Assembly: GCA_014730275.1 (NCBI GenBank)
Contig: WJIL01000084.1
Span: forward strand, 1 to 64,000
Source: Candidatus Lokiarchaeota archaeon
GTDB lineage: Archaea; Asgardarchaeota; Thorarchaeia; Thorarchaeales; Thorarchaeaceae
Reading direction: 5' to 3'
Length of the DNA stretch: 64,000 nt
The notes below the pieces were generated by a model. The model did no database searches. It worked only from the letters and a program-made list of their open reading frames with translations, and was not told the origin of the DNA. Of the stretch, positions 28,983 through 61,379 are shown in pieces; within the stretch, counting starts at the first letter, position 1, and each line of letters opens with the position of its first letter. Made by a program: the position numbers and the translations under genes.

Positions 28983-31900
28983 TTACTCCTGCTGTCTCTC
29001 TTCTGAACCCTCTTTCTCCTTCCTCTTCTTTTCCTCTAGGAGGTGTCGTTCCACTTCCTTCAAGAAGGCATAGGTTTTGTCCTCGGGTTCTTCCTCTTTT
29101 TCAGTTTCAACGGTGTCTTCAGATTCCTCTGCTTCTTGAATAACAACATCTTCCGTCTCGGCCTGCTTTTGAGTATCGGTCACTCTCTCTTGACGCGCTT
29201 CTTCTTCAGGTTGTTCGGCTTCTTGTGTGGATTCAACATTGTCTTCTTCACGGACAGGTTCTATACCTTGTCCTTCAACGCCGGATAATCCCAGCCCACG
29301 ACGTGTCATGAGGGTCTGTACGCTTATTGGTTCAATAGCGCCTTCTTCCTGTAATGTTAACAACCTCTCCAGTGTTTCTGCTTCTGTTTCGCCCAACTGT
29401 TGAGCTAGAGGAGCCAGAACTTCATCTATGCGGAATTCTTCTTTTTCGTCAAGGCTATCCTGGAGGAATCTCAGAACCGTTTTATCCTCCTTTCGGATGC
29501 GCTTTTCGTCAGCAATCTTCTGAGGAAGGAGCCAGTAGTAATCCAGAGTTGAGAGGAGATTAGATAGCACCCATTCAGGGTCAAAGCACTCTACACGACC
29601 CATCCAGTCTTCCAAATCACCTTCGTATTGACTTTCGAACATCTCTACAAAGAACTCGAGGCGGCGCTTAAGATTCGAGCTCATCTCTGATTCAAGTATG
29701 AGCATACCAATCAAATAGCGACCACTGTAGCTATTGAGCCTGAGTCCATGATAATGTATTTCCTCAAGTGTTCCCTTTACGCTACCCTCACCTGTAATTT
29801 CACCATACACACTAGTGATAGCGGAAATAAACCCGCTGATCAAATCTGGCTCGATATGTTTCTCTGTGAATGGAAAGTAGATAACACATGTGCCATGTTC
29901 TATATAAATTGCCATGAAGTGCTGCAGGGTTGAAAGCTCTCTGAATTGTTCAAGCTGTCTCTGTAAAGACTTGCGCCCTGCTTCCCTTCGCGGTTTGATT
30001 ACCTTGGTATAGGCTATGGCGCCTACGAGAGCCACTAGTGCCACAAGTATGGCCAGCTGAGCCTGTGGTGTTCGAACTGTGCTGATGAGGACTTCGATAA
30101 GACTTGGAGCCGGCCTTACTTCTATTGTAAGAACTTCTGTTTCAGCCGGCCATTCTGACTCAGATCCCTCATACCGTGCCCAGACTTCTAGAGCATTCGT
30201 CTCAGAAGGTATATCAAAACCGGCATTTGCAATTCCTTCATCGTTAGTCACAGCGGTAGTGGTTTCAACAGATGCACCATTTGTCCCTGCCATTCTTACA
30301 TGGAATACTATTGTTTTTCCTGGTAATGGTTCACCATTGCTGTCTTGCAGTACAGCTCGAATTGCAAGTGCTGAGCCCTCTGTTACGACTGTTGTTTGAG
30401 AAACGAGTTCCGCAGCTAGTGCGTATTCCGCCTTTGGCAGCACCTGTAGCGATATCTCGTCTTCTACCACTTGGCAGTCAGTTGCAGTTCCTCTAAGGGC
30501 CACAGTATAATCAGCAGGACTTATTGTAGAATTTAGCCAGATACTGGCTCTGTATGATTCGCTGGTTCTATCGTAGTCCAGTGCATATGTCGTTCCCGCA
30601 ATTGTTAGATTCACCTGCGCGAAGTCGATCAATTCGACATGATAGGTCTCATTAACACGTACTGAAACCTGCATAGTCTCGTTCTCGTAGATTTCCATAT
30701 CCTGATCGAAAATGAGTGAGAGTGGGAGTGGCCTGACCTCGATGGTGGGGGTCTCCAACACGGAATCATAACCTGGTGTTGAGAATGTAATTGTCAGAGA
30801 ATAATCATCTACATGAAGACTGGTGGAGTTAATCGTTAGCGAGTAGGTAAGGTTCGCATTTTCTACAATTTCATATGGTCCTGCCCATCCAACTGATGGA
30901 CTAGAATCTTCAATGCGTGTCGATGTTCTGCTATCCAAGTACTCTACCTTCAGTACGATTGAATCATTGACATACAACCATGTGCTACCTTCGATTTCAA
31001 TTGTCGTAGGAATAGATGAAACCTGAACTTGGAATGCTTCTTCTTTCGAAACAAAGCCATATGCTGAGACACTTACTTCACAGTTGTGAATACCTACTTC
31101 GAGCAACGTAGCATTGAGTGTTGTTTCCCAATACGTCCCTGTCCACGATGCAGAATGCTCCTCACCATTTACCAAGAAGGTGAGATTCGCAGGGCTGATA
31201 GCGGAAGAGTTACTCATCAAATACTCGATGGTAACATCAACGGTTTCATCATAATAGACTTCGAGACCTGTATCATTCACTCGCAAGGTCGTACTTGCTT
31301 CAATCACATTCAAGAAAAGATCGATTTCCTGTAATGCATAGCCATACCTGTTTACATACAGAGTCATGGTGTTGTTTTCGACTTCCAGCTTCGGACCTAT
31401 CGTAACGCTGTAATTTCCTTGTGACACATGCTGACCTAGGTAGGTTTCTGAGTCTACAGTAATCTCTATACTGCCATCTGTTATTGGTGTTCCATTTGAA
31501 GCATAGAATTCAACATAGAGATTTATGGGTGTTATGTAGTCGGTTGTATTTGAGGTCCAAGAAGGCAAAACACTTGGAGTGTCTTCATATACCGTAAGGT
31601 AGGATTGATCTTGTTTTGTTTCATATCCTGTTTTGTTTGCAACGATGGTTGCATTCCAAGTTCCTAGCGTTATTTCAGGAGCTGGAATCGTCGCACTATA
31701 CTTCTGAATGGATTCATTGAAAGGAATGTCACAGAATAACGTATCATTGAGAATTAGGCAAACTGTAGCATTCTCTATTGGTGTATTGTTGTAGTTATAT
31801 GTCACATTGACAGATATTGATTCTATGTAACTGATATTCTGACTTGTAGGATTCCAGAATACTTGGAAAGCATTCGGTGCAAGGGTAATGTTGACACCTG

Positions 31901-34900
31901 ATGTTATGTGCGAGCTCGATTCATAGCCATATCGCCATGCACTAATTGTCGCATTGTATATATCCGCAGGAAAGTCACCGCCTGGAATATCTGTAACCCA
32001 GTGGGAGCTATTCCAAAGCAAATCATACGTTGTACTCTCCATTGTGACATTTACCGTTGCATCATCTGGAACATCGAGCCCTCCGTAGGTGTATTTCACA
32101 GACAGGTTGAAAAACTGAGTCGTATCGATTGTAACATTGCTGGGATTCCAGCTCACATGGATCTCGGTGGGTTCTGGATTGATTACCAGATTCGAGGGTG
32201 TTCCCGATTCGGATTCGTAGTTCGATTTGGATGCTTCAACGGTTAGACTGAATGTTCCTAGGCCAATTTCTTCGTCAGTACCGTTGAAAATCAACTCATA
32301 GAATCCGCTTGTGCTATTCCACGTTAGATTCCATGTATTTGAAGCAATTGTTACGTTAATCCAGGCATTGTGAATGGCTGAACCATTTGCAATGGTGTAA
32401 TTCGCTCTAAGAGTGGTGCTCTGTGTGTACGTTATCGTGTTCGTATTGAACCATTCTAGCTCAAGGAAGGTTGGTTCCTCTCTCAGAACGAGGTCATAGG
32501 TAGTATTCGTTTTGCCATCATAGCCATATTTCCAAGCTGAGATTGTAACAGCATGCGTTCCAAGCCCCGGTGGATCATCAGTCCCATTCAGGACCACATC
32601 ATACATTGAGCTTGAGCTATTCCATGTGAGGGCAATTTCGAGGCCCCCAGCAGTGATGTTTACTTCTGCATCTAGTACTGCCGATCCATTACTCATTGTA
32701 TACTTTGCAGACAATCTTGTTGTTTGAAGATAGGTGATATTGTACCCATTAGACCAGAATATCTCTAGCGTAGTGCTTTCTATGGTAATTGTCAGACTTT
32801 CGGTTGAGTTGGTCTGCTGCTCATATCCGGTTCTACCTGCTTTGATATCCAGGGAATGGGTACCAAATCCCGGCGGATCGTTGGTACCGTTGAATCTGAG
32901 CTCGTAGAATTCGCTTACTTCGTTGTACGAAAGGTTCCACGTGTTTGAGTCTATCGTGACATTCACTATCGCATCTGTCACCGCTGTTCCGTTGGAGAGT
33001 GAGTAGTTTACCAACAGTGTGGTCTGTTCTACATAGGTGATACTATTTCCATCAGACCAACCGACCGTGAGCGGCTCAGTATCATGGATGAGTTCAACCG
33101 AAATGATGAGACTTTGGTTTTCTATGGCAAATCCTTCGCCAAATACCTCTATTGTATGACTGCCTGGACTTCTCCCTACTGTATCCACGTTGGCAGTCCA
33201 TGTTCCATTGTTTTGGTCTGTCATGGTCTGGTTGGCTTCGCCATCAAAGGAATAGACAACGTTGGCAAATGAATTATTCAATCCGACATCGTTGAATGTA
33301 TCATTGAAATGGACTCTTATCGGGAAGCTGCTTTCGGTGTATGCGTCTATAGAGTATTGGTCTGCATCCAGAGAGGTGGGATAGAAGACAACTATTTCCT
33401 TTGTGAGATAACCCGCCTCTGTCCCGTTTGTCCAATATACTTCTAGGGTATATGTTCCATTGTCTTGTGTTTCTGCATTGATATCCCACAAGTAGTACGT
33501 TTTGCCATCAACGACGTTTTGATTGCTTGGTGGCCAGGTTGTCTCACCTTCGTGTAAGACCGTCAGGTTGGTCGAACCAGTATTTGCAGGATTCCCAGAT
33601 TCGTCTGAGATGCTGGTGTTGATCTCCATATCCACCAAGATACTTGCTTCTCGCTGCAACTCTGAATTGTCCGATGAATCGTAGGTATTTATCGAATCAA
33701 TATAATTTGGTGCCGTCAAGGTCAGAGTCCATGTTCCATTCGTCATGTTAGCGCAGGTTACAACTTCACTATATGCTGTGAAATTATCATGATTAGTTTG
33801 AGAAGAACCATTGTAGAGAGCACTTGGTGACCAGTCATTCATTATTGATATGTTCACAAACTTGCCTGTTGTATCGCTATATTCAGGATAACTTAGCGAT
33901 GTAGTCACATTCCAATCTGTTGCTGAGCCTGATGAATCGACTTCCCAGATACTCGCCAATTTGGATTCTCTTTTGTACCATAAGGTAAGATTGTGCTCTA
34001 TATATGCCGATTGATTCGAATTGAATTCTATTCTGGTGATGTTCTTATCATTCTCGAATATCCATTTGGTGCCAGACAACGAAGTTTTGTTTCCTTTCAG
34101 CAGAATTTCTTCAGCTTGGAATTGAAGAACAGAGTTTGTTGAGGTATTCCATGGCAAGTAAGTATAGTTGAGCAAAGCCTCATATTCAAGATTGGAGCCC
34201 CAGTCCGAAAAATCTGTTCTGTACCAATAGCTAGAGTAATCCCCATAATTCTCCTCGGTATACCAGTAAATTTTTGGGTAATTAGAAGAATATTCTGATA
34301 ATGATCTCCCATCCATTACAACATGATACTCGTGCCCCTTATCTAGAACCGCTGTAGTGGTGACATTGTACCAAGTTTTTACGCCTGTGATGCCAGGCAT
34401 ATCATCAGACGAAGTAACAGTACTAGATGAATTATCATAATCCTTTCTCACTTCTAGATACAAGTTCCCATAATTCGAAAGCGGTTCACCCCAGAGATTC
34501 ATCCAGGTATAAATGGAATAATTGAGAAGTCGCCCCTCTTGTGTGAGATTGAAACCCTGTGCAAGCTGGTTAGTTTTTGCCCCGCCGGATTCCTCTATAT
34601 TGAATCCTGTTGCGGGGCTTGAGCTTGAACCAGCGACGGCTCTCTCAGGACCTGCATATATATTCTCCACGTTCAGGTCAGCATGATGAAGAGTCCATCC
34701 GGGGACATGATACTGCGAAATATCAATCGAACCATTGTGTGCGTCAGGATTTGCATAGGTATTCAGAATGCTCGTGTTCAAACCGGTGATGGTCCTTGAC
34801 ATGAACATTGTTCCGTTTCTGTCATTCCCACTATCGCTAACTGAGGATTGAATATGCTGTAAGGATGCATCTTGATTTAGTGCATGAGTCTTGTCGTTAT

Positions 34901-34982
34901 CTCCATGTATTGGCTTTTGGGTTGGCGTGACCAATAATAGCATGACGAGCAGGACAAAAATGGTTGTTCCAAGCTTTTTCAT
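28983..34982 (-). CDS. Giant Ig-like repeat surface protein with cytoplasmic longin/roadblock-like domain
   Basis: 1999 residues. A signal peptide (LGTTIFVLLVMLLLVTP) leads to an extracellular region of ~1600 residues, rich in N-glycosylation sequons and Ser/Thr. It begins with a jelly-roll-like region (~50–400) and continues with tandem Ig-like or invasin-like beta domains. One membrane helix follows near residue 1645 (LAILVALVALVGAIAYT), with basic residues after it, so the C-terminal ~330 residues are cytoplasmic. There, HFMAIYIEHGTCVIYFPF and EPDLISGFISAITSVYGE resemble the N-terminal module of the soluble protein at 49002–50201 (DPDLISSFLSAMTSF) and the longin/roadblock-like folds common in Asgard archaea. 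A helical segment and a long Glu-rich tail end the chain. It looks like an adhesin or receptor linking the surface to cytoplasmic signalling (inference). Confidence 0.85.
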   Translation of the reverse strand: MKKLGTTIFVLLVMLLLVTPTQKPIHGDNDKTHALNQDASLQHIQSSVSDSGNDRNGTMFMSRTITGLNTSILNTYANPDAHNGSIDISQYHVPGWTLHHADLNVENIYAGPERAVAGSSSSPATGFNIEESGGAKTNQLAQGFNLTQEGRLLNYSIYTWMNLWGEPLSNYGNLYLEVRKDYDNSSSTVTSSDDMPGITGVKTWYNVTTTAVLDKGHEYHVVMDGRSLSEYSSNYPKIYWYTEENYGDYSSYWYRTDFSDWGSNLEYEALLNYTYLPWNTSTNSVLQFQAEEILLKGNKTSLSGTKWIFENDKNITRIEFNSNQSAYIEHNLTLWYKRESKLASIWEVDSSGSATDWNVTTSLSYPEYSDTTGKFVNISIMNDWSPSALYNGSSQTNHDNFTAYSEVVTCANMTNGTWTLTLTAPNYIDSINTYDSSDNSELQREASILVDMEINTSISDESGNPANTGSTNLTVLHEGETTWPPSNQNVVDGKTYYLWDINAETQDNGTYTLEVYWTNGTEAGYLTKEIVVFYPTSLDADQYSIDAYTESSFPIRVHFNDTFNDVGLNNSFANVVYSFDGEANQTMTDQNNGTWTANVDTVGRSPGSHTIEVFGEGFAIENQSLIISVELIHDTEPLTVGWSDGNSITYVEQTTLLVNYSLSNGTAVTDAIVNVTIDSNTWNLSYNEVSEFYELRFNGTNDPPGFGTHSLDIKAGRTGYEQQTNSTESLTITIESTTLEIFWSNGYNITYLQTTRLSAKYTMSNGSAVLDAEVNITAGGLEIALTWNSSSSMYDVVLNGTDDPPGLGTHAVTISAWKYGYDGKTNTTYDLVLREEPTFLELEWFNTNTITYTQSTTLRANYTIANGSAIHNAWINVTIASNTWNLTWNSTSGFYELIFNGTDEEIGLGTFSLTVEASKSNYESESGTPSNLVINPEPTEIHVSWNPSNVTIDTTQFFNLSVKYTYGGLDVPDDATVNVTMESTTYDLLWNSSHWVTDIPGGDFPADIYNATISAWRYGYESSSHITSGVNITLAPNAFQVFWNPTSQNISYIESISVNVTYNYNNTPIENATVCLILNDTLFCDIPFNESIQKYSATIPAPEITLGTWNATIVANKTGYETKQDQSYLTVYEDTPSVLPSWTSNTTDYITPINLYVEFYASNGTPITDGSIEITVDSETYLGQHVSQGNYSVTIGPKLEVENNTMTLYVNRYGYALQEIDLFLNVIEASTTLRVNDTGLEVYYDETVDVTIEYLMSNSSAISPANLTFLVNGEEHSASWTGTYWETTLNATLLEVGIHNCEVSVSAYGFVSKEEAFQVQVSSIPTTIEIEGSTWLYVNDSIVLKVEYLDSRTSTRIEDSSPSVGWAGPYEIVENANLTYSLTINSTSLHVDDYSLTITFSTPGYDSVLETPTIEVRPLPLSLIFDQDMEIYENETMQVSVRVNETYHVELIDFAQVNLTIAGTTYALDYDRTSESYRASIWLNSTISPADYTVALRGTATDCQVVEDEISLQVLPKAEYALAAELVSQTTVVTEGSALAIRAVLQDSNGEPLPGKTIVFHVRMAGTNGASVETTTAVTNDEGIANAGFDIPSETNALEVWARYEGSESEWPAETEVLTIEVRPAPSLIEVLISTVRTPQAQLAILVALVALVGAIAYTKVIKPRREAGRKSLQRQLEQFRELSTLQHFMAIYIEHGTCVIYFPFTEKHIEPDLISGFISAITSVYGEITGEGSVKGTLEEIHYHGLRLNSYSGRYLIGMLILESEMSSNLKRRLEFFVEMFESQYEGDLEDWMGRVECFDPEWVLSNLLSTLDYYWLLPQKIADEKRIRKEDKTVLRFLQDSLDEKEEFRIDEVLAPLAQQLGETEAETLERLLTLQEEGAIEPISVQTLMTRRGLGLSGVEGQGIEPVREEDNVESTQEAEQPEEEARQERVTDTQKQAETEDVVIQEAEESEDTVETEKEEEPEDKTYAFLKEVERHLLEEKKRKEKEGSEERQQE
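30300..33090 (-). repeat. Tandem ~90–100-residue Ig-like repeats coded within the surface protein
   Basis: The coded repeats share the pattern: a Trp in a strand such as LEIFWSNGYNITYLQTTRL, a strand with YTMSNGSAV, a middle TWNLTWNSTSGFYELIFNGT, then GLGTFSLTVEASK and a linker. At least four units are closely alike (about residues 630–1010) and several more distant ones follow toward residue ~1560. DNA identity between units is not high enough to look like recent duplication. Confidence 0.75.
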
Positions 34983-51814: not shown

Positions 51815-51889
51815 TGGTGGACCGGACGAGAATCGAACTCGTGTCCTTCTGGATGCAAACCAGACGATCTACCGCTGATCTACCGGCCC
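51815..51889 (-). tRNA. tRNA-Ala (anticodon TGC), CCA encoded
   Basis: Read on the minus strand from 51889: acceptor GGGCCGG pairing CCGGTCC with the G3:U70 alanine identity pair, TA, D-arm GATC/GATC, anticodon stem TCTGG/CCAGA around TTTGCAT (anticodon TGC), variable AGGAC, T-arm ACGAG TTCGATT CTCGT, discriminator A and an encoded CCA. No intron. It borders the accessory island and is a possible integration site. Confidence 0.97.
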
Positions 51890-52182
51890 ACTATTGGGTT
51901 GAGCGACGCCTTAAGATACGTCTTCTGTCGTACAGAGTCTTTTCCATCAGCATTGGCTTAAAAGTATTAGTCTAGCGGGTTTGTACCAAGAATAGCATAT
52001 AAAGCATAATCCTGGGCAATTCGACAATTTCGAGCGTAGAAGAAATTTGGAATCTTCAGCTAATCAACCAATAAATTGCTCAGATGGACTTTCAAAGTCT
52101 TTGTGCATCCCGGCCATGAAAACCGAAATGCTGATGACAGACAGTTCCTAGTAGCTAGACCACAGGAGGGTACGTCCTACCT
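51890..52182. other. Gap upstream of tRNA-Ala, no clear gene
   Basis: 293 bp before the small-gene pair. The part nearest the tRNA should hold its promoter (a TATCTTAA-like element reads toward it at 51911–51920). A 94-residue frame from 52076 exists but has no ribosome site or recognisable content. I see no repeat or hairpin of note. Confidence 0.4.
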
Positions 52183-52404
52183 ATGCCGAAAGAACCAACC
52201 AAGGGAACTGTTCAAACGATTACGAAACGATATGGGAACCAAAACCCCACCAGTTCCAGGGAAGAGGGAACCTGGCATCAAATCCACCAGCTTCCCGGCC
52301 TCAATATGGACTCAACAACTTTGGAATTCATTATCATACCAACGCAATCTCAGCTCATGACCCTGTGCGAGTATCTTCTATGGGAGAGAATATATGATGA
52401 GTGA
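52183..52404 (+). CDS. Small 73-residue protein, coupled to the next gene
   Basis: Starts with an ATG; AGGAGGG lies ~17 nt upstream. The sequence has a basic, polar N-terminal half (KEPTKGTVQTITKRYGNQNP) and a hydrophobic C-terminal half (TLEFIIIPTQSQLMTLCEYL). It overlaps the next gene by 11 nt through ATATGATGAGTGA, which supports it as real and translationally coupled. The layout could suit a small DNA-binding or antitoxin-like partner, but nothing proves this. Confidence 0.5.
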   Translation: MPKEPTKGTVQTITKRYGNQNPTSSREEGTWHQIHQLPGLNMDSTTLEFIIIPTQSQLMTLCEYLLWERIYDE

Positions 52405-53023
52405 AGATGCAGGCTCAGATGACCTCAGCGAGTTCATGGCCCCAAGGAAATCTGAGGAGGAAAATCCGTACGTACTCAGAGTCATGACTGGAAAGGCGAT
52501 TATTGTCGATCTTGACTGGTATCCCGAAATGCACGAAGACTATGAAGAACTGGAAGAGCTAGAGGAAGAACAGGCGCTCTGGCAGATGTTCGTCTTCAAG
52601 TGCATGGACGAGATTAAGTTTCTTGATGCTGATGCACAGTACGAGGAGCTGACCTGGAGTGAGAATTTGATTGACTGCTCCTTGCTTCTCGTACCCACTG
52701 CCATCCACAGGATTCAGGGACCAATCGGGCTGTACCCACGATTCTGGGGCTACATATGCAAACAAACCCCGGGAGACCCCTCAGTTACTGCCTTGAAGGC
52801 AACGATATCATTACCTGCAGATCTCTCAGGGATCGTAGAGAAAAGCCCAGATATCACGTTCGGATATACTGCAAATCCTCTGAATGATAAGAAGGTGCTC
52901 ATGCTCTCTACGACGTACTGGGGGCTTAAGGAATTCGAGAAAGCTGGTGAGGAACGGCACGCACATAAGTTCGGGGCGACTGAGGTCCTCATGGGGCACC
53001 GCTCGGAGGAGTGCCCTCATTAA
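52394..53023 (+). CDS. 209-residue protein, possible partner of the giant nuclease
   Basis: Acidic protein of unknown family. The N-terminus is disordered-looking (MMSEDAGSDDLSEFMAPR), followed by an acidic helix (YEELEELEEEQALWQMFVF) and a mixed beta-rich body (SLLLVPTAIHRIQGPIGLY, FWGYICKQTPG). The C-terminus ends in HRSEECPH. No catalytic motif. It overlaps the 73-residue gene by 11 nt, and its stop overlaps the stop of the 1409-residue gene by 4 nt in convergent orientation. The tight packing suggests that the three arrived together. Confidence 0.6.
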   Translation: MMSEDAGSDDLSEFMAPRKSEEENPYVLRVMTGKAIIVDLDWYPEMHEDYEELEELEEEQALWQMFVFKCMDEIKFLDADAQYEELTWSENLIDCSLLLVPTAIHRIQGPIGLYPRFWGYICKQTPGDPSVTALKATISLPADLSGIVEKSPDITFGYTANPLNDKKVLMLSTTYWGLKEFEKAGEERHAHKFGATEVLMGHRSEECPH

Positions 53024-56000
53024 TCTCCCCATTTCCCATACCGCTCTCGAATAATCCTGATACGGGCTGTATGACCGGGATGATGCTTCTTCATAGATAT
53101 CCCCCTGTGCTTTGCTGACAATTCTCGCATGATTTCGCTTTCGCTGAAAACGAGTCTGTCAAAATCTGTTTGACCCGGGTCAAATTTCAGTACGATTCGC
53201 CGTCCTTTCAGTACTACTTCTAGGGTATCGATGAGCTCTCCCACTTGCTTATCTGTCAGTCCTTCTCTAATGCCAATGTTCTTGCCACCCAAGAGCCGCC
53301 AGCTACTTGGAGACAGCTCCACGGCCCAACAGGCATCATGATCTAGATTCGGGTCTTTGGCAAGGGGACATAGCGCCTTATTGTGATAGATGGTGATTTG
53401 CTCTGGTTGCAGGTCTTCCACAGCATCATCGATGAGGGGGGAGAGCGACGGTCTCAGGGCCCTTGAGGTGCTCACCATGTAGCTTTCTAGGAATCCATAC
53501 TCTTCTCCGAAGTCAATGTCTGGTTCTATCCGAGAATAATCATGGAGCGTGTTCCATGTCAGGTGGAGTTTCCCTATCCGCAATGGCCTTCCCGCTGTCC
53601 ATGGCCACCTGAGCAACCTCAGAACATCAACGGTATTTTTGAGTAGGAGTGTCTGAAGGGATGTTTCGCCTTCACTGTCTAAGAACTTGACCGCACAACG
53701 TTCACCATACTTACGCAGCTGCACCTTCACCGATTGTACCTGCACGAGCTTCTCGGACAAGTCGCGAATAGTGCTCCGGAAACTAGTCTCGAAACCTGAA
53801 GGAAACGGAATGTCTGGGACCGAAACACCTTCTGGGGGCTTCCTTGGGTTGATGCCAAAACCTTGCAGAGTGATGTCAGCTGAGCTCCGACGCAGGACAT
53901 AGTCACACGTACCCACGAATGTCCCACCCGAAGGACCGCCAGTCTGCCTCCAGATCCACCACTCGGGGCTCTTCTCTGCATTCGAATTCGGGTTCCTCTT
54001 CCTTCTGAGAATATATGTCTCCACGTCCTTGAAGCGATGGAATCGTTTTGCAGCTTGACGTACCAAGTCTAGTCGCTGGACATCCCAGTCAAACCCTTCC
54101 TTGGTCTCACGAGTCGGGAATAACCCGAATGCGATTCCCGCTGCCGTACTCGGATCCAGTACAGCACGCCACTCATACTCTTCTCCATATGATGATAGGA
54201 TCATTACGAAGCGGATATGGGCAATCTCTACCTGGTCTTGTGTTGGGCATGGTTTCTGCTGGAGCCGCCAAGGTTTGGTTTTCAATTTCTGTGGTTCATG
54301 GTATATCCGTGGATAATTGATGACACCGACATACAACGGCTGAAAGGCCTTGCCTCCTCCAGCGCCGTCAGGTCGGATTCGCACGCGTTCAAGCAGGGAA
54401 GGCGCACTGTCTGGAGGAGTCCCCAGTACGGACCGTTCAAAGGTGGTTACGTCCCGGGGAATCGAGTATTCTGAAAGCATTTGTTCGTACTCTTGAAGAA
54501 TACACTGGAATCCGTGCTTGGCGTCCATCTTCTGGGTCGGGTGCAGGTCAACGAGCCAGGGGATTAAAGAGAGCCCAAGGGTTTCCATCCGGGCCCTGAC
54601 CGAGGCATCAGGCACCACCTCGGCAAAGCTATTTCTATGGGAGACTTCTCCCATGTCCCTGTTATCGAATCTTTTCGACCACTCCATAAGCAGGGGAACG
54701 AGGGTTGATTCTATTGAGAAGCCTGTCTTCCGCTGCCTGACTATGACTCTAATATCGTCATACATCGGTGTTTTTGTGGGATAAGGCAAGAACCACTCCC
54801 CGGGAAGGACTTCATCCCGCGGGGCCACAGGCAGGTTCCAGATAATCTCGTTGACAATACCTCGCAGGGGAGACGAGTCATAGAACGGGAGCAGTGAGCG
54901 TTTGGAATAAGGGGTTGACATTTCTGCTGCTGGTACAGGTGAGTCAAACCAGAAGATGGTGGCTGAGTCCGAAGTTGGGAGCTGTGAAAGTATGATTCTG
55001 AGGAGTGGATTCAGTCGCCATCGGTAGGGCCCCGGTGTTGCGTATCGGATTGTATCCATCCCGGAGACTACGATCAAGCAGTTTTCTTGCGGGAGCGATT
55101 CCAATCGTTTTCCTACCGCTTCAGCGGTACCATTGCGGAAGATGAACGAATCAATCTCGTCAAAAAGCCCCCTGAACGAAATCATATCAACAAGTTCCTG
55201 GACATCCTGCCGGTGGGTCCGCCGAGTGTCTTCTTCATCGGTTGAGTAGGGTCGGAGCAACAACCGGGCTTCACGAAGCTCCGGTTCTATGAAATCGCTG
55301 GCTAGGTCTATCCAAACAATCTTATCGTACTGGTGTTCTTCAGCTATTTGCTTGATTTCCTGTAGCCCATGATAGTGCTTCGCATGCCAGGCCGCTGATA
55401 TACCAGAAGAGGTTGGTGATGCTGCTGATGTATAGAGCAGGAATCTCCTTCCGTCAGATTGTGCCAGCGCTAATGGATCGTATGAGGGTCGCCATGATGG
55501 TCTTATTGGCGGTTCGGTAGGGTCCACCGGCTGTTCTCTTTTATTCATGATGAGAGCAATCCGGGGCTTGTGTCCACGGACCTTTGGCTCAAGCACGAGC
55601 CTGCCGCCACTAGGAGGGTTCTTTACCACTTCTTCGTAGGCATTGATGATCAATCCACGGAGCATGTCTCGAAGCAGCCTGATATCCTCGGTCACGTCAA
55701 CAAGTATTGTTCCCGTGAAGATGGCGGGCTCCTCCGCACATCCAGTCAATTCCTTGTATGTATCCCAAACTGCAGCTGTATAGGTGTCAATCTGTTTTTG
55801 TGTCCCTTCGTCCGGCATGGCCTGAATGAATGCTTCCCATTCCTCGTCATCCAGCGGCCTTCGACCGAAGCGGTAGTCTATAACCCGTTTGTATCTCTTT
55901 TTCTCTTCCTCTTGCTTTCTGAACGCATACTCAGGCGGGAGGGTACGCTCCACAAATGTGCGTTTTATGTCCACTTCAGAGTGGATGTCTTTGATACCTA

Positions 56001-57249
56001 GTGTTATACTAGGTCCCAGTTTTGTTTTCAAATCCAGTACCATAACCGGTCGGTAATGGGCTTGATTTCCCTGCTCAGATACTACCCGCCGCAAGAGGAT
56101 CACATCCGCTTTTCCTTTACCTTTCTCTGTATCGAGAGGGGTCTCAAAACACACGAGATACCCGTCACTCCTTCCGTACGAATCACCCCGTGTAATCGCG
56201 TCACGGAGTGACCAGGGGCTGGTCAATTGACTGAACACAAACTCATGGACGCGTGACCCGGTCGTACTGGCCTTCTCCTCGAGGCGGGAATGGAGCCTAG
56301 CCATATCGTCCTCGCGGAACAGCGACTCATCTTCGACTAGTAACTCAAACTCTTCAATCGACTCATGAGTGATTCCCTTAGAGTATACCTCCTCAATCCA
56401 AGCGCGACAGATATCCGTGGACAGGGTCGGTTTCCTCTCCGTCTTGGACTCTGTGACCGTTTTTGGTGCTCCTTGACGGGTTTCATAGTGATACTCAACG
56501 TCTTCTTTCAGTTCCCTGAGTATGCTATCGGTTCCTCCTCTGAATCCGTTCTTTCCGATAAGGCATTCGGAGTATAAATAATCTAGATAGGGGCGGGCTC
56601 GTAGCTGGTAGAGGTTCCAGTAGCGGCCGGCGTCCCTTGGAGGTATATCGTAGATGAAGGCGTAGCCTGCGAAATAGTCGAGGTGGTGCCTGATTGAGTC
56701 GACTAGGTCAAGCGACGGAAGATCCGGATGGACGAGTGGAGTGCGAGGACCGTAGGAATCCGGAGGATATCCTGCTACACGGTATTTCTTCCTTTTTTCT
56801 CCGACTATCCGAGTTTTATAGCCAAACAGTTCAGGGTCGGGGAAGAGGTACCGGGTCATACCGAAATTGCGGAGCTGGGCACCGAGGACATTGAACCGCT
56901 GATTCAGCGGCCCAACTTTCGCGTGGGGGTTCCTGATACGTTTTACTTCTACATTTCCGTATGCTGCCGTGTTTTCCATGACCATCTTTAGGAGGTTCTT
57001 CCGGATGATCGACTCTGCTTTGAGGACGTACTTGTGGTCTCCTTCATCGTTTTCGACGGTCTGATAATAGACATCCTTTGCGGCTACCAAACTGTCACGC
57101 GAACTTCGATAGAGGTTCTCAGTATTTTTATTCTGGATGTTTCGCTGCAATTCAACAGCAGCAGAGAGACCTCTGCGTACCGCGAGTGAGACCACCTTGT
57201 TTGGGTGTTTAGGCATGACCTTTGGGGGTCGTCCACGACTTCTTGGCAA
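53020..57249 (-). CDS. Giant protein with RecB/Cas4-like nuclease motifs and a degenerate P-loop-like region
   Basis: 1409 residues; I recognise no full-length family. Residues ~370–490 carry the PD-(D/E)XK pattern of RecB/Cas4-type nucleases: Asp382 in GKADVILLRR, Asp406-x-Lys408 in VLDLKTK, and the downstream QIDTY (QxxxY, 486–490). Residues ~600–770 look like an alpha/beta ATPase: a strand LLYTSAAS followed by SPTSSGIS where a Walker A (GxxxxGKS) would be, a Walker-B-like LIVVSGMD and a sensor-like ATIFWFDS. The P-loop Lys is absent, so ATP hydrolysis is doubtful. The N-terminus is very basic (SRGRPPKVMPKHPNK, AT-hook-like GRPPK). The remaining ~600 residues are beta-rich and unassigned. 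A DNA-targeting defence or mobile-element nuclease is likely, by inference. Confidence 0.7.
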   Translation of the reverse strand: MPRSRGRPPKVMPKHPNKVVSLAVRRGLSAAVELQRNIQNKNTENLYRSSRDSLVAAKDVYYQTVENDEGDHKYVLKAESIIRKNLLKMVMENTAAYGNVEVKRIRNPHAKVGPLNQRFNVLGAQLRNFGMTRYLFPDPELFGYKTRIVGEKRKKYRVAGYPPDSYGPRTPLVHPDLPSLDLVDSIRHHLDYFAGYAFIYDIPPRDAGRYWNLYQLRARPYLDYLYSECLIGKNGFRGGTDSILRELKEDVEYHYETRQGAPKTVTESKTERKPTLSTDICRAWIEEVYSKGITHESIEEFELLVEDESLFREDDMARLHSRLEEKASTTGSRVHEFVFSQLTSPWSLRDAITRGDSYGRSDGYLVCFETPLDTEKGKGKADVILLRRVVSEQGNQAHYRPVMVLDLKTKLGPSITLGIKDIHSEVDIKRTFVERTLPPEYAFRKQEEEKKRYKRVIDYRFGRRPLDDEEWEAFIQAMPDEGTQKQIDTYTAAVWDTYKELTGCAEEPAIFTGTILVDVTEDIRLLRDMLRGLIINAYEEVVKNPPSGGRLVLEPKVRGHKPRIALIMNKREQPVDPTEPPIRPSWRPSYDPLALAQSDGRRFLLYTSAASPTSSGISAAWHAKHYHGLQEIKQIAEEHQYDKIVWIDLASDFIEPELREARLLLRPYSTDEEDTRRTHRQDVQELVDMISFRGLFDEIDSFIFRNGTAEAVGKRLESLPQENCLIVVSGMDTIRYATPGPYRWRLNPLLRIILSQLPTSDSATIFWFDSPVPAAEMSTPYSKRSLLPFYDSSPLRGIVNEIIWNLPVAPRDEVLPGEWFLPYPTKTPMYDDIRVIVRQRKTGFSIESTLVPLLMEWSKRFDNRDMGEVSHRNSFAEVVPDASVRARMETLGLSLIPWLVDLHPTQKMDAKHGFQCILQEYEQMLSEYSIPRDVTTFERSVLGTPPDSAPSLLERVRIRPDGAGGGKAFQPLYVGVINYPRIYHEPQKLKTKPWRLQQKPCPTQDQVEIAHIRFVMILSSYGEEYEWRAVLDPSTAAGIAFGLFPTRETKEGFDWDVQRLDLVRQAAKRFHRFKDVETYILRRKRNPNSNAEKSPEWWIWRQTGGPSGGTFVGTCDYVLRRSSADITLQGFGINPRKPPEGVSVPDIPFPSGFETSFRSTIRDLSEKLVQVQSVKVQLRKYGERCAVKFLDSEGETSLQTLLLKNTVDVLRLLRWPWTAGRPLRIGKLHLTWNTLHDYSRIEPDIDFGEEYGFLESYMVSTSRALRPSLSPLIDDAVEDLQPEQITIYHNKALCPLAKDPNLDHDACWAVELSPSSWRLLGGKNIGIREGLTDKQVGELIDTLEVVLKGRRIVLKFDPGQTDFDRLVFSESEIMRELSAKHRGISMKKHHPGHTARIRIIRERYGKWGD

Positions 57250-57389
57250 CGGTGGTCTTGTTGAGGCTTATTTTCTTTTGTTTTTTGCGGGTATATATTT
57301 ATTATAGTTAATTATTAAACTGGAACTAGGATGTCTTCAATGCGCCTAGATGATTATCAAATAATAAGATAATATTTCTCCTTAATAGG

Positions 57390-57483
57390 TTTAAATATGA
57401 CTATACTGTATCAAAGTATGAGTTCATTACCTCGGGTGAAAACAATACGAGGAGTGAACTCAACTAACCCCGGAACAGGTTAG
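57390..57483 (+). promoter_or_regulatory. TATA element and two hairpins upstream of the tnpB gene
   Basis: An AT-rich gap (57250–57504) separates the divergent giant-nuclease and tnpB genes. TTTAAATATG at 57390–57399 is a good TATA box. About 20 nt on, GAGTTCA/TGAACTC with CCTCG/CGAGG forms an imperfect hairpin at 57420–57461, and CTAACC/GGTTAG a second at 57464–57483. A second TATA-like TTTAAATAG follows at 57487. RNA from the first promoter would start almost exactly at the first hairpin. The hairpins could instead be the left end of an IS605/IS1341-type element. Confidence 0.5.
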
Positions 57484-57504
57484 AGGTTTAAATAGGCGAT
57501 ACCC

Positions 57505-59187
57505 ATGACACGCTCCCACGCCCCAGTGATTACGGTTAAAATCCCTATAGCATGGGATGAGATGACCAGCTCCAGTCGTCAGCGATTGGAGCAAATCACT
57601 GGAAGGGATTCGCGGATCATCCATGCGTTCTTTGGTATCATCGAAGAGAATGAAGGAGAGCTCCTTAGGGGTAAGGGCAAGAAGCGTATTGACGAAAACA
57701 AGCTTCATGCCATGACCATGACTGCCTTGCGGGTTGCTCATGGTGAGGAACAGAGACTGGAAGTTGAACATGACTTCAAGGAGCGGTTTCCCCGTATTTC
57801 TGCTAATGAGTTGTCCGAATGTCGGCGAATCGCTATTGCCAATTACGAGAGCTATTTGGCCCTGCGCGCCAAGAAGTGGAGGAAAGCCTCCCGACCTGCA
57901 GAGACCAACAGCGAAAAGCGGATACCTCGTATGATGTACATCCCTCGGAGAGCGAAACTCGTTGAGCATGACACAACGATTGCACGGCTGTGGCTGGATA
58001 TCCGTGATTCCTTGGACTCAGTGCAAGAGGGCCGGAGGATTCATGATAGGCTCCGCATCCCCTTGAAGATCGCTCCCTTTCATCTTGAAGAACTGGCGAG
58101 AGGGAAGCCAAAGGCTGTACAGGTATTCGCCGACCGACATGGTAAGTGGTGGACTGGTATAATTGTTCGCCTTACTACTGTCGAAAAAAGAAAGGACGCT
58201 GAGCTACCGCCTGCTATCCTTGGGATTGACCTGGGTATCAATTGCGCGGCATGCACGACGCTGCTTACTCAGCACAAGGTATCCAAAACCCGTTATTTCA
58301 AGCAGAAAGAGAAACATCAGGTGTTTCTTCGATATGAGGAGCGAATAGCAGACCTTCAACATGACCTTGATACGAGAAGAAGCAATGGGAAGAACTGTGA
58401 TGGGTTGATCCGTAAACTTAAGGAACTCAAGACAAAACGAGCCGATGCGGCTAAGACCTATGATCGGGCCCTGGTCAGCAATCTCCTGTCGTATATCGAA
58501 AAGCTAAGCCAACGGTATCAGCTCTATGTTGGTATCGGGAGGCTCAAGGGTATCCGGAATGCCGCCAGACGTGGAAATTACAAAGGCCCTACGTTCAGAG
58601 GCATGGTACACAGATGGAGCTTCTCGCGGATCACTGAGGGGCTCAAACACGGGCTCGAACAGCTCGGGTGGGAAGTGGAAGGCAAGGATAGCCGCTTCCA
58701 TGCGGTACCCGAGAACTGGACCTCGATCATGTGCTGGAAGTGTGGCAACAAGGGAGTGCGCCCCAAGCAATCGTTGTTTGTATGCCACACGTGCGGCTTC
58801 CGCACCAATGCCGACCGCAATGGCTCCCTCAACATCGCACGTCGTTTACTTACACTCATTCCTTCACTTAAGGATGAGACCGGACTAGGGCGGTGGGCCA
58901 CCCCCGAACGGGGGAACGGTTCAGCCCCGAAGGCTGCAAGGCGGACACGTTCCGCTAAGCAGAAGTCCTCACTCTCCAAACAAGGGACATCATCAGCCCC
59001 TGGAGAGTCCGCGGTTGTTCGCTTTGTCCAACTGGACCTGTCTGGTTTCGGCGACGAGACTGGGCGGAGCGATAATAACCCCGCCGTGGCAAAAGCTGTG
59101 GAAAACCTCGCTGCCCCCGGGCGTGATGTGCCTGGAACCGGGCAGGAGACAGAAGCCGAGACCGCAAGAGGGACTGTGTCCTGCTGA
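57505..59187 (+). CDS. tnpB: TnpB-family (IS605 OrfB/Cas12 ancestor) protein with altered RuvC-II
   Basis: 560 residues, longer than the usual ~400. RuvC-I is ILGIDLGIN (Asp242); the zinc finger has Cys410/413 (CWKCG) and Cys427/430 (CHTCG); RuvC-III is TNADRNGSLNIA (Asp437). The RuvC-II segment reads YVGIGRLKGIR, with Gly345 where active TnpB has the catalytic Glu (VxE-x-L). The enzyme is either nuclease-dead, like TnpB-derived RNA-guided repressors, or uses a relocated Glu, as in some TnpB clades. No tnpA is nearby. The last ~110 residues are low-complexity and lie over DNA with strong hairpins, so they may exist because a guide-RNA scaffold overlaps the gene end. GC-rich relative to neighbours. 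Confidence 0.88.
   Translation: MTRSHAPVITVKIPIAWDEMTSSSRQRLEQITGRDSRIIHAFFGIIEENEGELLRGKGKKRIDENKLHAMTMTALRVAHGEEQRLEVEHDFKERFPRISANELSECRRIAIANYESYLALRAKKWRKASRPAETNSEKRIPRMMYIPRRAKLVEHDTTIARLWLDIRDSLDSVQEGRRIHDRLRIPLKIAPFHLEELARGKPKAVQVFADRHGKWWTGIIVRLTTVEKRKDAELPPAILGIDLGINCAACTTLLTQHKVSKTRYFKQKEKHQVFLRYEERIADLQHDLDTRRSNGKNCDGLIRKLKELKTKRADAAKTYDRALVSNLLSYIEKLSQRYQLYVGIGRLKGIRNAARRGNYKGPTFRGMVHRWSFSRITEGLKHGLEQLGWEVEGKDSRFHAVPENWTSIMCWKCGNKGVRPKQSLFVCHTCGFRTNADRNGSLNIARRLLTLIPSLKDETGLGRWATPERGNGSAPKAARRTRSAKQKSSLSKQGTSSAPGESAVVRFVQLDLSGFGDETGRSDNNPAVAKAVENLAAPGRDVPGTGQETEAETARGTVSC
58901..58955 (+). ncRNA. Three consecutive hairpins in the tnpB 3' end (omegaRNA scaffold candidate)
   Basis: CCCCC GAAC GGGGG (58901–58914), CAGCC CCGAA GGCTG (58922–58936) and GCGGA CACGT TCCGC (58941–58955) are perfect 5-bp stems in a row, just after the RuvC-III codons. 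TnpB guide RNAs are made from the 3' end of tnpB and the adjoining element end, so this is where the scaffold is expected. The 3' limit and guide are not determined. Confidence 0.55.
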
Positions 59188-59223
59188 TGGTGGTCAAAGT
59201 CCTTGCTTAGCCGGGGGTAGCGC

Positions 59224-59366
59224 CCTGGTGTAGTGGTGACACTGGGCAAGGAAAGGGTGGAACATAGGAGTTTCATCAGTTGGGTTCACTCACCCAACCG
59301 CGAAAACAGGTTATCCAGGAAGTCGCGTGTTCAAATCACGCTCGGTCCACCACTTTCCTTTTTTCG
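59224..59366 (+). tRNA. tRNA-like 3' half with long insertion; 5' half not identified
   Basis: A perfect T-arm (GCGTG TTCAAAT CACGC, 59325–59341), acceptor strand TCGGTCC, discriminator A and CCA end at 59352, followed by a T-run terminator (59353–59366). CCTGG at 59224 could pair with CCAGG at 59315 as an anticodon stem around ~86 nt containing a TTGGGT/ACCCAA hairpin, as an intron would. TGGTGTAGTGG at 59226 resembles a D-arm instead. I find no 5' acceptor strand (GGACCGA-like) nearby, so this could be an intron-rich tRNA, half of a split tRNA, or a remnant left at an integration site. The left boundary is a guess. Confidence 0.4.
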
Positions 59367-59455
59367 TCCATGTTTCAGTTCTCAAGGATTGCGTAGTTAT
59401 GAGCTGTCAATAGGTCAGACTGTAACTTCTTTACAACTATTGAAAGGTGATTGAA

Positions 59456-59806
59456 ATGAGTGAAGACATGAAGCTGATTTTCCGGAGTAACGTTACAGGC
59501 TCTGGGGTACCAGTTGTGCATTATCAGTGCGATTTTCTGGATAAAGGAGGTCATACGGACCCGACAAAAGGAGCGAAATGGATGCCCCAGGATACCACAC
59601 CACTGTTGTTCTCCGCAGAGAAAGCCGCTGAGGAGCTTGGTTGCCAGCTAATGGTTGTCGATGTCAATGGGCTTGGATTCATGGAGAAACTGAAAGAGCG
59701 GCTGTCTGGAAACCCCATTCCACGGCTTGTGATTGGATCTCGTACAGTAACAGGATTTCCTACGAAGAAGGAAATCGTAAAGATATATCGAGAAGTCTGC
59801 AAGTAA
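59456..59806 (+). CDS. Thioredoxin-fold-like small protein without a CxxC motif
   Basis: About 116 residues. The C-terminal part IPRLVIGSRTVTGFPTKKEIVKI looks like the glutaredoxin/thioredoxin cis-Pro strand and last helix, and LMVVDVNG is a central strand. The usual CxxC is missing; two lone Cys residues occur (HYQCDF, LGCQLM). It may be a structural or binding relative, not a redox enzyme. The ATG at 59456 follows AAAGGTGA; a GTG three codons upstream is possible. Confidence 0.6.
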   Translation: MSEDMKLIFRSNVTGSGVPVVHYQCDFLDKGGHTDPTKGAKWMPQDTTPLLFSAEKAAEELGCQLMVVDVNGLGFMEKLKERLSGNPIPRLVIGSRTVTGFPTKKEIVKIYREVCK

Positions 59807-60041
59807 CGGTATCGCCCCCTCTCTTTGGAATGTCATCTCCGTTGGTAATCCAACATGTTGCTATTCGTTTCCTATGCCGAGTCACCTATAAGTGCGGGTT
59901 AGCCGGACAACCACGAGGGGGATATCAGTCCTCAGAGGTCACCACCAAAAAGGGCTCTTCTCCTCAGAGTCAGAAAGTATAATTGGAGTCTTTAGTTTGA
60001 TAGAACAGTCACATGATTCTTTAGCCACAGGTGACAATACC

Positions 60042-61379
60042 ATGAGTCCTGATACCAACAAGCCGAAAGCTGCCGTCTTCTGGGATGCTGAAAATGTTAC
60101 TTCCGTACGAGACGAGCGCATAGCAGAAGGTTTCAAGAATTGGCTTGATGAGGTATACGACGCCGAAGTCAAATACGCATTTGCTGATTGGAACGGTCCG
60201 TATCAGGATGTGGGAAAGCGCCTGTATCGCATTGATTTTGATCTTATTCACGTTCCAGATGATTTGAAGGATAGTGCCGATTGTCAGATGGCCACCTATG
60301 TTGTGGACTGGCTCGTGCGCTCGCCTGAAACGGAATCGTTCATCTTGGTTTCATCAGATGCTGTGTTTGAGCCTCTGATGATTGCACTTCAGAAGCAAGG
60401 AAAGGACGTTGTTGTTGTCAGCAGTCCAATGATCACACGCCCCGAAACAGTGATTCGGTCAGATGAATACTTGGACATTGATTCGTTCCGTCCAGTTGCC
60501 TATGATTTAGAAGTAATCGGCGAGGAACACACAAAACAGCGTTCTCCCGAAGAACTACGAGCTATCGGCTTTAGGAGATTGCAGGAAACCATTGTCAGAA
60601 TCAAAAAGCTGGGAAAGGCAACCTATCCCCGATATGTAGAAGCAGTAGTCAAGCATCTTAATCCAGAAATAGACATCACTCGATTGGGCTTCGACGACTG
60701 GGGACAGCTCATTTCACAGGCTCTCATTGAGGAGCTTGTTGTGAAAGAAGGAGAGAAACCATATGCAGAGCTGAAGCTTCGGAAGTCGGTTGCTAAGCTG
60801 ACCGAGGATCAGACTGATACGCTAGATGCAACCTTCGAGAGATTTAGAGAGCTTGTAGAATCAATGGCCAGCCAAAGTGATTACATGGGCATGGAACGAG
60901 TTGTCCAAAAAGTCCGAAACGCTGGTATCGATTTCACAAAGCATGGCTACGATAAATTCGGTGATTTCGTGAGAGCAGCTGAAAGCCGCAATCTTGTACG
61001 CATAGAGCCTCAGGAAGGAAAACCTCCTGCAGTTAAACCAGTATATAGTGTGGAGCAAATGAAGAACTGGTACGAAAACAATGTCAAAGATTACTTTGGG
61101 TCGGGTGCGAAAGTTCCCCGTGATCGATATATCCAGCGAACTATCCAAATGCTCTACAAATATGATGTGAGTATCCATGAGATGGAGAAGTACTTGAAGG
61201 ATAGCAACATTCAGCGTAAATATCAGCGCATCCTCAAAGCAAGTGGCCTGTCATTCATCCCACCGTATGAGCAGATAATAGTGAGCATACTATTTGGCAA
61301 GGGCTGGAGTTGTGAGGACGTTATTGATGTCGTCAACTCAGAATTGGAACCGCTAGGATACGCTGTTGAGTGTCCCTAG
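60042..61379 (+). CDS. NYN-domain endoribonuclease fused to OST-HTH/LOTUS-like repeats
   Basis: About 445 residues. The N-terminal NYN (PIN-like) domain shows the acidic residues expected of the nuclease: AVFWDAENV, DLKDSADCQMATYVVDWL and FILVSSDAVFEPL. Two OST-HTH-like winged helices follow: one near GKATYPRYVEAVVKHLNPE with LGFDDWGQLI, and one near DYMGMERVVQKVRNAGID with HGYDKFGDFVRAAE. The C-terminal ~110 residues are helical. The same domain pair occurs in eukaryotic MARF1-type proteins and bacterial LabA-like proteins; RNA binding and cleavage is the likely role. ATG at 60042 is chosen for the AGGTGA eight bases upstream. Confidence 0.88.
   Translation: MSPDTNKPKAAVFWDAENVTSVRDERIAEGFKNWLDEVYDAEVKYAFADWNGPYQDVGKRLYRIDFDLIHVPDDLKDSADCQMATYVVDWLVRSPETESFILVSSDAVFEPLMIALQKQGKDVVVVSSPMITRPETVIRSDEYLDIDSFRPVAYDLEVIGEEHTKQRSPEELRAIGFRRLQETIVRIKKLGKATYPRYVEAVVKHLNPEIDITRLGFDDWGQLISQALIEELVVKEGEKPYAELKLRKSVAKLTEDQTDTLDATFERFRELVESMASQSDYMGMERVVQKVRNAGIDFTKHGYDKFGDFVRAAESRNLVRIEPQEGKPPAVKPVYSVEQMKNWYENNVKDYFGSGAKVPRDRYIQRTIQMLYKYDVSIHEMEKYLKDSNIQRKYQRILKASGLSFIPPYEQIIVSILFGKGWSCEDVIDVVNSELEPLGYAVECP

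What the first reader, a model, noticed from the sequence alone, without database searches (positions are those of the whole stretch)
57505..59187. Long TnpB protein missing the RuvC-II glutamate
Seen: Asp242 (RuvC-I), Asp437 (RuvC-III) and both zinc CxxC pairs are intact, but the RuvC-II segment has Gly345 at the Glu position. Known: nuclease-dead TnpB proteins act as RNA-guided repressors, and some TnpB clades have moved the Glu elsewhere. Which of these applies here is open; the absence of tnpA and the single copy would suit domestication.
Basis: partly seen in the sequence, partly recalled or inferred. Interest (0 to 1): 0.7.

Follow-up and report, generated by a model that had tools for sequence, protein, structure and literature searches.

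The report
TnpB nuclease with moved catalytic glutamate
This Asgard (Thorarchaeota) gene encodes an RNA-guided DNA-cutting enzyme that looks as if it had lost one catalytic residue but carries it at the alternative position already known from Fanzors; it is one of several relatives in its genome, which also holds many stand-alone copies of its guide RNA and no detectable transposase of the usual types.

Summary
In detail: the ORF at 57505-59187 is a TnpB with Gly345 at the canonical RuvC-II Glu position. It is not a dead TnpB by sequence. A glutamate sits six residues before the zinc ribbon (Glu403, ENWTSIMCWKC), exactly the published "Ealt" position of Fanzors and of the D-Phi-G Ealt TnpB clade (PMC10711439). 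The AlphaFold model puts Glu403 just after the fifth RuvC strand, before the zinc ribbon, as described for Fanzor. The core evolves under purifying selection. The protein's "extra length" (residues ~466-560) is the omega-RNA region read as codons. It is not single-copy: the genome has four paralogs and about nine stand-alone omega-RNA copies, and relatives occur in 37 of 47 genomes of the Thorarchaeota family. Most likely it is an active TnpB nuclease of a known kind. Cleavage was not shown here. The least expected part is the large, sequence-constrained set of stand-alone guide-RNA loci in transposase-free Asgard genomes.

The parts
57382..57504 (+). Left-end region: conserved TTAATA-n-TTTA(A/T)AT box followed by a subterminal palindrome 57419-57462 (GAGTTCATTACCTCG...CGAGGAGTGAACTC). 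The exact outer boundary is not resolved (no empty site found).
   Evidence: LE alignment with paralogs and relatives; hairpin -27.4 kcal/mol for 57410-57500
57505..58899 (+). TnpB protein proper, residues 1-465 (WED/REC, RuvC, zinc ribbon)
   Evidence: Pfam PF07282; NCBIfam NF040570 guided_TnpB 81 bits, below its cut-off of 100; codon-position variability 0.286/0.192/0.555, pN/pS 0.30; AF2 core well predicted
58228..58230 (+). Asp242, RuvC-I
   Evidence: invariant apart from one misaligned fragment
58537..58539 (+). Gly345 at the canonical RuvC-II Glu position
   Evidence: 44/44 and 30/30 Gly; aligned to E of AsCas12f
58711..58713 (+). Glu403, proposed relocated catalytic Glu (Ealt)
   Evidence: 45/45 and 31/31 Glu; matches the published Ealt regular expression from residue 242 to 437; lies just after strand 398-402
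58732..58797 (+). Zinc ribbon, C410/C413 and C427/C430 (ribbon starts at codon 410)
   Evidence: invariant
58813..58815 (+). Asp437, RuvC-III
   Evidence: 45/45 and 31/31
58900..59187 (+). ORF extension, residues 466-560: read-through of the omega-RNA region, predicted disordered
   Evidence: flat codon-position variability 0.270/0.261/0.284 and pS reduced to 0.36 from 0.79; pLDDT below 50 for 470-560; some relatives' ORFs stop near residue 465-480
58860..59315 (+). Right end / omega-RNA region, conserved as DNA in paralogs and in about nine stand-alone copies in this genome; ends ...GGTTATC
59152..59293 (+). Structured core of the omega-RNA (covariance model R1): helices with compensatory changes
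   Evidence: 17 pairs, 11 with both-side changes, 60 double-changed cells against 15 +/- 5.5 in shuffles
59279..59298 (+). Terminal hairpin GTTGGGTTCACTCACCCAAC near the right end
   Evidence: fold
59316..59335 (+). Inferred guide (first ~20 nt beyond the right end); lies in a tRNA-Ala 3' half that ends near 59352
   Evidence: flank unrelated between copies; tRNA-Ala match in relatives

Best explanation
This is a TnpB RNA-guided DNA nuclease of the kind whose RuvC-II glutamate has moved. Asp242, Glu403 (just after the fifth RuvC strand, before the zinc ribbon) and Asp437 form the metal-binding triad, and Gly345 marks the vacated canonical site. The protein is about 465 residues; the rest of the ORF is the omega-RNA gene read in frame. 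TnpB binds the structured RNA that ends at the element's right end (59315) and uses the DNA next to it as guide, then cleaves matching DNA that lacks the element. Repair by recombination would copy the element back, which would explain retention without a transposase. Stand-alone omega-RNA elements elsewhere in the genome can supply further guides in trans. Shown here: residue conservation, predicted fold, RNA covariation, copy numbers, absence of TnpA. Inferred: metal binding, cleavage, guide use, retention by homing, trans use.
For: Glu403 is invariant 45/45 and 31/31 in a set found by HMM search. P0001 matches the published Ealt pattern D{P}G-x(120-160)-ExxxxxxCxxC-x(12-18)-CxxC-x(4-8)-D from residue 242 to 437, as do 64 of 68 long family sequences (rows from two overlapping sets); the other four keep the ExxxxxxCxxC part. 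The two positions swap reciprocally in distant relatives from viral contigs: the nine hits that cover both and keep Glu at the canonical site have Pro at the Ealt column, and the two with Gly there (L188, L193) have Glu at Ealt. The AF2 model has strand 339-346 carrying Gly345, strand 398-402 ending just before Glu403, and helix 436-451 starting at Asp437; the Fanzor structure paper places the Glu in the loop between the fifth strand and the TNB domain. Structural neighbours are AsCas12f Z 16.2, mimivirus Fanzor2 Z 15.5 and ISDra2 TnpB Z 14.2. The protein core is under purifying selection, pN/pS 0.30. A covarying RNA sits at the expected place. Nothing here points to loss of the other catalytic residues.
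Against: No cleavage data. The tool gave no coordinates, so the Glu403-Asp242-Asp437 distances were not measured. Whole-model pTM is only 0.46, and rmsd to solved structures is 8 A or more over 350+ residues for the TnpB/Cas12f/Fanzor rows. Invariance in the first set is partly built in, because one of its two search patterns contained the Glu. TAM and left boundary were not determined. Conserved catalytic residues do not prove activity.
Confidence: 0.85

Rival explanations
1. Nuclease-dead TnpB acting as an RNA-guided repressor (TldR-like): the missing RuvC-II Glu abolishes cleavage and the protein only binds DNA.
For: Canonical Glu is Gly in every member. No TnpA in the genome.
Against: Glu403, Asp242 and Asp437 are all invariant across the family, which a dead nuclease would not need. 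The Ealt position is a described active arrangement in Fanzors. There are many paralogs and omega-RNA copies rather than one fixed locus.
Confidence: 0.07
2. The stand-alone omega-RNA loci are host-retained guide RNAs, and the TnpB is a domesticated multi-guide nuclease rather than a selfish element.
For: In one relative 18 stand-alone copies differ by 3% per site at columns conserved in tnpB-linked copies but 32% at variable columns. In this genome private changes are fewer at conserved columns (8/718 against 28/674, p = 0.0003). Copies are diverged, not recent bursts. No transposase in the genome.
Against: The same pattern arises if stand-alone elements are MITEs descending from active, constrained lineages. 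Their flanks differ, and apart from C130 none of this genome's elements compared shared a flank with the seven same-genus loci compared. No target analysis of the guides was possible.
Confidence: 0.12
3. A type V CRISPR effector (Cas12f/Cas12u-like).
For: PADLOC Cas12f and Cas12u3 models match and AsCas12f is the best structural match.
Against: No CRISPR-like repeat array in 56900-60000. The RNA lies at the 3' end as in TnpB elements, with element ends and copies elsewhere.
Confidence: 0.02

Closest known systems
TnpB proteins with D-Phi-G RuvC-I and alternative RuvC-II Glu (Ealt), one of two Ealt clades in Yoon et al. 2023, PMC10711439
   Same: DLG RuvC-I motif, no canonical Glu, Glu exactly six residues before the first CxxC, zinc ribbon, RuvC-III Asp
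   Different: Thorarchaeota-wide family with a large (~440-nt) conserved right-end RNA region, many stand-alone RNA copies and mostly no TnpA; placement inside that clade was not tested with a tree
Fanzor1/Fanzor2 and cyanobacterial pro-Fanzors
   Same: Glu in the loop between the fifth RuvC strand and the TNB domain; similar fold (mimivirus Fanzor2 9b0l Z 15.5)
   Different: RuvC-I is DLG, not DPG; archaeal; no IS607-type serine TnpA in this genome
ISDra2 TnpB (8h1j, 8exa)
   Same: Overall fold, 3' omega-RNA overlapping the ORF end, guide taken from the right flank (the last two inferred for this protein)
   Different: Canonical RuvC-II Glu in ISDra2 (general knowledge); longer protein and RNA here; no partner TnpA
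TldR (nuclease-dead TnpB repressors)
   Same: Lack of the canonical RuvC-II Glu
   Different: All three acidic residues are present and invariant when Glu403 is counted; multi-copy family
Stand-alone omega-RNAs / MITE-like derivatives of IS200/IS605 elements (from general knowledge)
   Same: Non-coding copies with the element's ends and RNA, dispersed with different flanks
   Different: Up to 47 RNA-model hits in one Asgard genome (tnpB-linked copies included) that has no Y1 TnpA

Membership tests
TnpB (IS200/IS605-IS607 RNA-guided nuclease) | RuvC domain with TNB zinc ribbon (PF07282) | tested here: met
   43.4 bits against a cut-off of 26.3; structure match to 8h1j Z 14.2
TnpB (IS200/IS605-IS607 RNA-guided nuclease) | NCBIfam guided_TnpB curated cut-off | tested here: not met
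   81.1 bits against 100; a naming threshold rather than a defining property, consistent with a divergent branch; the exact subfamily label is left open
TnpB (IS200/IS605-IS607 RNA-guided nuclease) | Structured RNA at the 3' end overlapping the ORF, ending at the element's right end | tested here: met
TnpB (IS200/IS605-IS607 RNA-guided nuclease) | RNA-guided DNA cleavage | not testable with these tools
   needs biochemistry
Ealt TnpB, D-Phi-G type | No canonical RuvC-II Glu; Glu six residues before the first CxxC; D-Phi-G at RuvC-I | tested here: met
   pattern match at residues 242-437; family-wide
Ealt TnpB, D-Phi-G type | Falls inside the Ealt clade in a TnpB tree | not tested
   reference sequences were not at hand
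Fanzor / pro-Fanzor | DPG at RuvC-I together with Ealt | tested here: not met
   DLG in all family members shown that cover this site, apart from one misaligned fragment
TldR-like dead TnpB | Loss of catalytic acidic residues | tested here: not met
   Asp242, Glu403 and Asp437 invariant
Type V CRISPR effector | Adjacent CRISPR array | tested here: not met
   no such repeats in 56900-60000
Autonomous IS605/IS607 element | Encodes or co-occurs with Y1 or serine TnpA | tested here: not met
   none in this genome; Y1 in 2 of 47 and serine recombinase in 14 of 47 family genomes; the six best serine loci carry no relative of this TnpB or its RNA

The most novel reading that the evidence does not exclude
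In Thorarchaeota, a transposase-free, Fanzor-like (Ealt) TnpB works with a dispersed set of separately encoded guide-RNA loci, maintained by selection, so that one nuclease is programmed in trans by ten or more guides; and whole TnpB-RNA units are swapped at the same chromosomal site between species by homing.
Probability: 0.12. Interest if true: 0.7.

Novelty: new member of a known kind. Interest (0 to 1): 0.38.

Why it matters
It resolves an apparent dead nuclease into an active-site rearrangement that is already known, now seen family-wide in Asgard archaea, and it corrects two traps: TnpB ORF length inflated by the overlapping RNA, and 'single copy' inferred from one window. Transposase-free Asgard genomes with up to 47 matching RNA loci would be a useful place to test whether TnpB elements persist by homing alone and whether stand-alone guide RNAs act in trans.

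Tried and rejected
Helix ITEGLKHGLEQLGWEVE as site of the new Glu: not conserved. A tRNA gene or intron within the element (the motif GGTGTAGTGGTGACAC near 59228): ARAGORN with introns and Rfam found nothing, and the alignment shows it is part of the RNA; only the right flank is tRNA-derived. The C-terminal 95 residues as a real protein domain: rejected by flat codon-position variability and disorder. Y1 TnpA of G018 as the mobiliser: it sits beside a different TnpB, 23% identical to this one, with no matching RNA. Serine recombinases as partner: none of the six best loci carries this TnpB or RNA. Viral contigs: only distant TnpBs, 24-44% identity. Empty site and TAM: no element-free orthologous site found; the one shared locus is occupied in both species. 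Altae-Tran et al. 2023 (PNAS) could not be read.

Full report
What was claimed and what is there. The ORF 57505-59187 (+) encodes a 560-residue TnpB. Asp242, Asp437 and both CxxC pairs are intact, and Gly345 lies at the canonical RuvC-II Glu position, as the HMM alignment to AsCas12f shows (IQMEDLTNIRD against YVAIGRLKNIRN).

Is the Glu really missing? I collected relatives from genome contigs: 39 loci from Thorarchaeota and two from Heimdallarchaeota. Gly345 is invariant (44/44), and so is Glu403 (45/45) in ENWTSIMCWKC. One of the two search patterns contained that Glu, so I repeated the test on sequences found by HMM search in 47 genomes of the same family: Glu403 31/31, Gly345 30/30, Asp437 31/31. 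The position of Glu403 is the published alternative Glu: Yoon et al. (PMC10711439) define Ealt as six residues upstream of the zinc finger and give a regular expression, which P0001 matches from residue 242 to 437, as do 64 of 68 long family sequences taken from two overlapping sets. The same paper describes two Ealt clades, DPG (Fanzors and pro-Fanzors) and D-Phi-G; this protein has DLG. Distant TnpBs from viral contigs give an independent check: the nine hits that cover both positions and keep the canonical Glu have Pro at the Ealt column, and the two with Gly at the canonical site have Glu at Ealt.

Structure. AlphaFold2 on 37 family sequences gives a good core (mean pLDDT 73.9 overall, most blocks above 80 within residues 10-450) and a disordered tail from residue 470. 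Asp242 is on strand 236-244, Gly345 on strand 339-346, Glu403 directly follows strand 398-402, and Asp437 starts helix 436-451. The Fanzor structure paper puts its catalytic Glu in the loop between the fifth strand and the TNB domain (PMC11423790). Matches are AsCas12f (Z 16.2), mimivirus Fanzor2 (15.5) and ISDra2 TnpB (14.2).

Why the protein looks long. In residues 8-450, variability by codon position is 0.286/0.192/0.555 with pN/pS 0.30; in residues 470-557 it is flat, 0.270/0.261/0.284, and synonymous differences drop from 0.79 to 0.36. The tail is therefore constrained as nucleic acid, not as protein. The region 58860-59315 is conserved as DNA in paralogs and relatives. Its 142-nt core (59152-59293) has helices with compensatory changes: 17 pairs, 11 with double changes, 60 double-changed cells against 15 +/- 5.5 in shuffles, and sliding the partners destroys the signal. 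This is the expected omega-RNA, ending in GGTTATC at 59315, after which all copies diverge.

Copies and mobility. The genome (3.64 Mb, 99.5% complete) has four full-length paralogs and about nine stand-alone copies of the RNA region with different flanks. Family-wide, 37 of 47 genomes have the TnpB, and 37 of 47 have the RNA, with up to 47 RNA hits in one genome; these RNA hits include tnpB-linked copies. No Y1 or serine TnpA was found in this genome; Y1 TnpA is in 2 of 47 family genomes, and the stronger of the two sits with a different TnpB; serine recombinases occur in 14 of 47, but the six best loci carry no relative of this TnpB or RNA. Copies are diverged: at best 94% in this genome and 85% among the stand-alone copies of one relative. 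Stand-alone copies change least where tnpB-linked copies are conserved (3% against 32% in one genome; private changes here 8/718 against 28/674, p = 0.0003). That fits either selection on stand-alone RNAs or descent from active constrained lineages; I cannot separate the two.

A shared site. Paralog C130 and a same-genus genome (G001:C5) share flanks at 90-93% identity with a TnpB element at the same site and the same right flank, yet the enzymes and RNAs inside belong to different subfamilies, with only short weak nucleotide matches between the flanks. Such a swap could be homing or ordinary recombination between element ends.

Mechanism and verdict. Best reading: an active RNA-guided nuclease with triad Asp242-Glu403-Asp437, guided by RNA ending at 59315 plus the flanking bases, which keeps its elements in place by cutting element-free sites. 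The triad location is well supported by conservation and topology; cleavage, guide use and retention are inferred from what is known of TnpB. The dead-repressor reading is disfavoured. Known kind, new Asgard-wide member; interest moderate because of the transposase-free genomes with many guide-RNA loci.

Noticed in passing
L218 4300-6157 (G000:C130) and L206 2994-6020 (G001:C5): Orthologous locus in two same-genus genomes (flanks 90-93% identical) holds a TnpB element at the same site in both, but with different TnpB and omega-RNA subfamilies; G001 also has a second partial right end ~0.9 kb downstream.
   Followed up: partly
window 59316-59352: The element's right flank (inferred guide) is the 3' half of a tRNA-Ala gene incl. 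CCA; no 5' half was seen left of the element, and an intact tRNA-Ala(TGC) lies at 51815-51889 (-).
   Followed up: partly
L160-L176, L179 (G006): 18 stand-alone omega-RNA elements share a left-end palindrome GTATGAGTTCATATAC and right end ...TAGGTTATA. An upstream TGTAAGA-rich stretch in several of them is also seen in stand-alone copies of the window's genome (C103, C132, C143, C66, C9), but was not seen upstream of tnpB copies; perhaps a promoter.
   Followed up: partly
L220 (G000:C150), 174-555 and 3524-3666: Two stand-alone copies on one 4.3-kb contig share an identical 40-nt left part but diverge inside; one is truncated.
   Followed up: no
L208 (G001:C2): A truncated tnpB plus RNA, 87% identical to window 58537-59315, directly abuts sequence homologous to window 52074-52491, i.e. 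a rearrangement relative to the window.
   Followed up: no
window 53020-57249 (-): 1409-aa ORF with no match in Pfam, NCBIfam or PADLOC, next to the element.
   Followed up: no
window 59892-61379 (+): 495-aa ORF with an N-terminal NYN nuclease domain (PF01936).
   Followed up: no
window 28983-34982 (-): 1999-aa ORF with only weak Ig-like (Big_1) matches.
   Followed up: no
L158 (G018:C338): The only strong Y1 TnpA in the family sits beside a different TnpB (23% identity to this one), i.e. a separate IS605-like element.
   Followed up: yes
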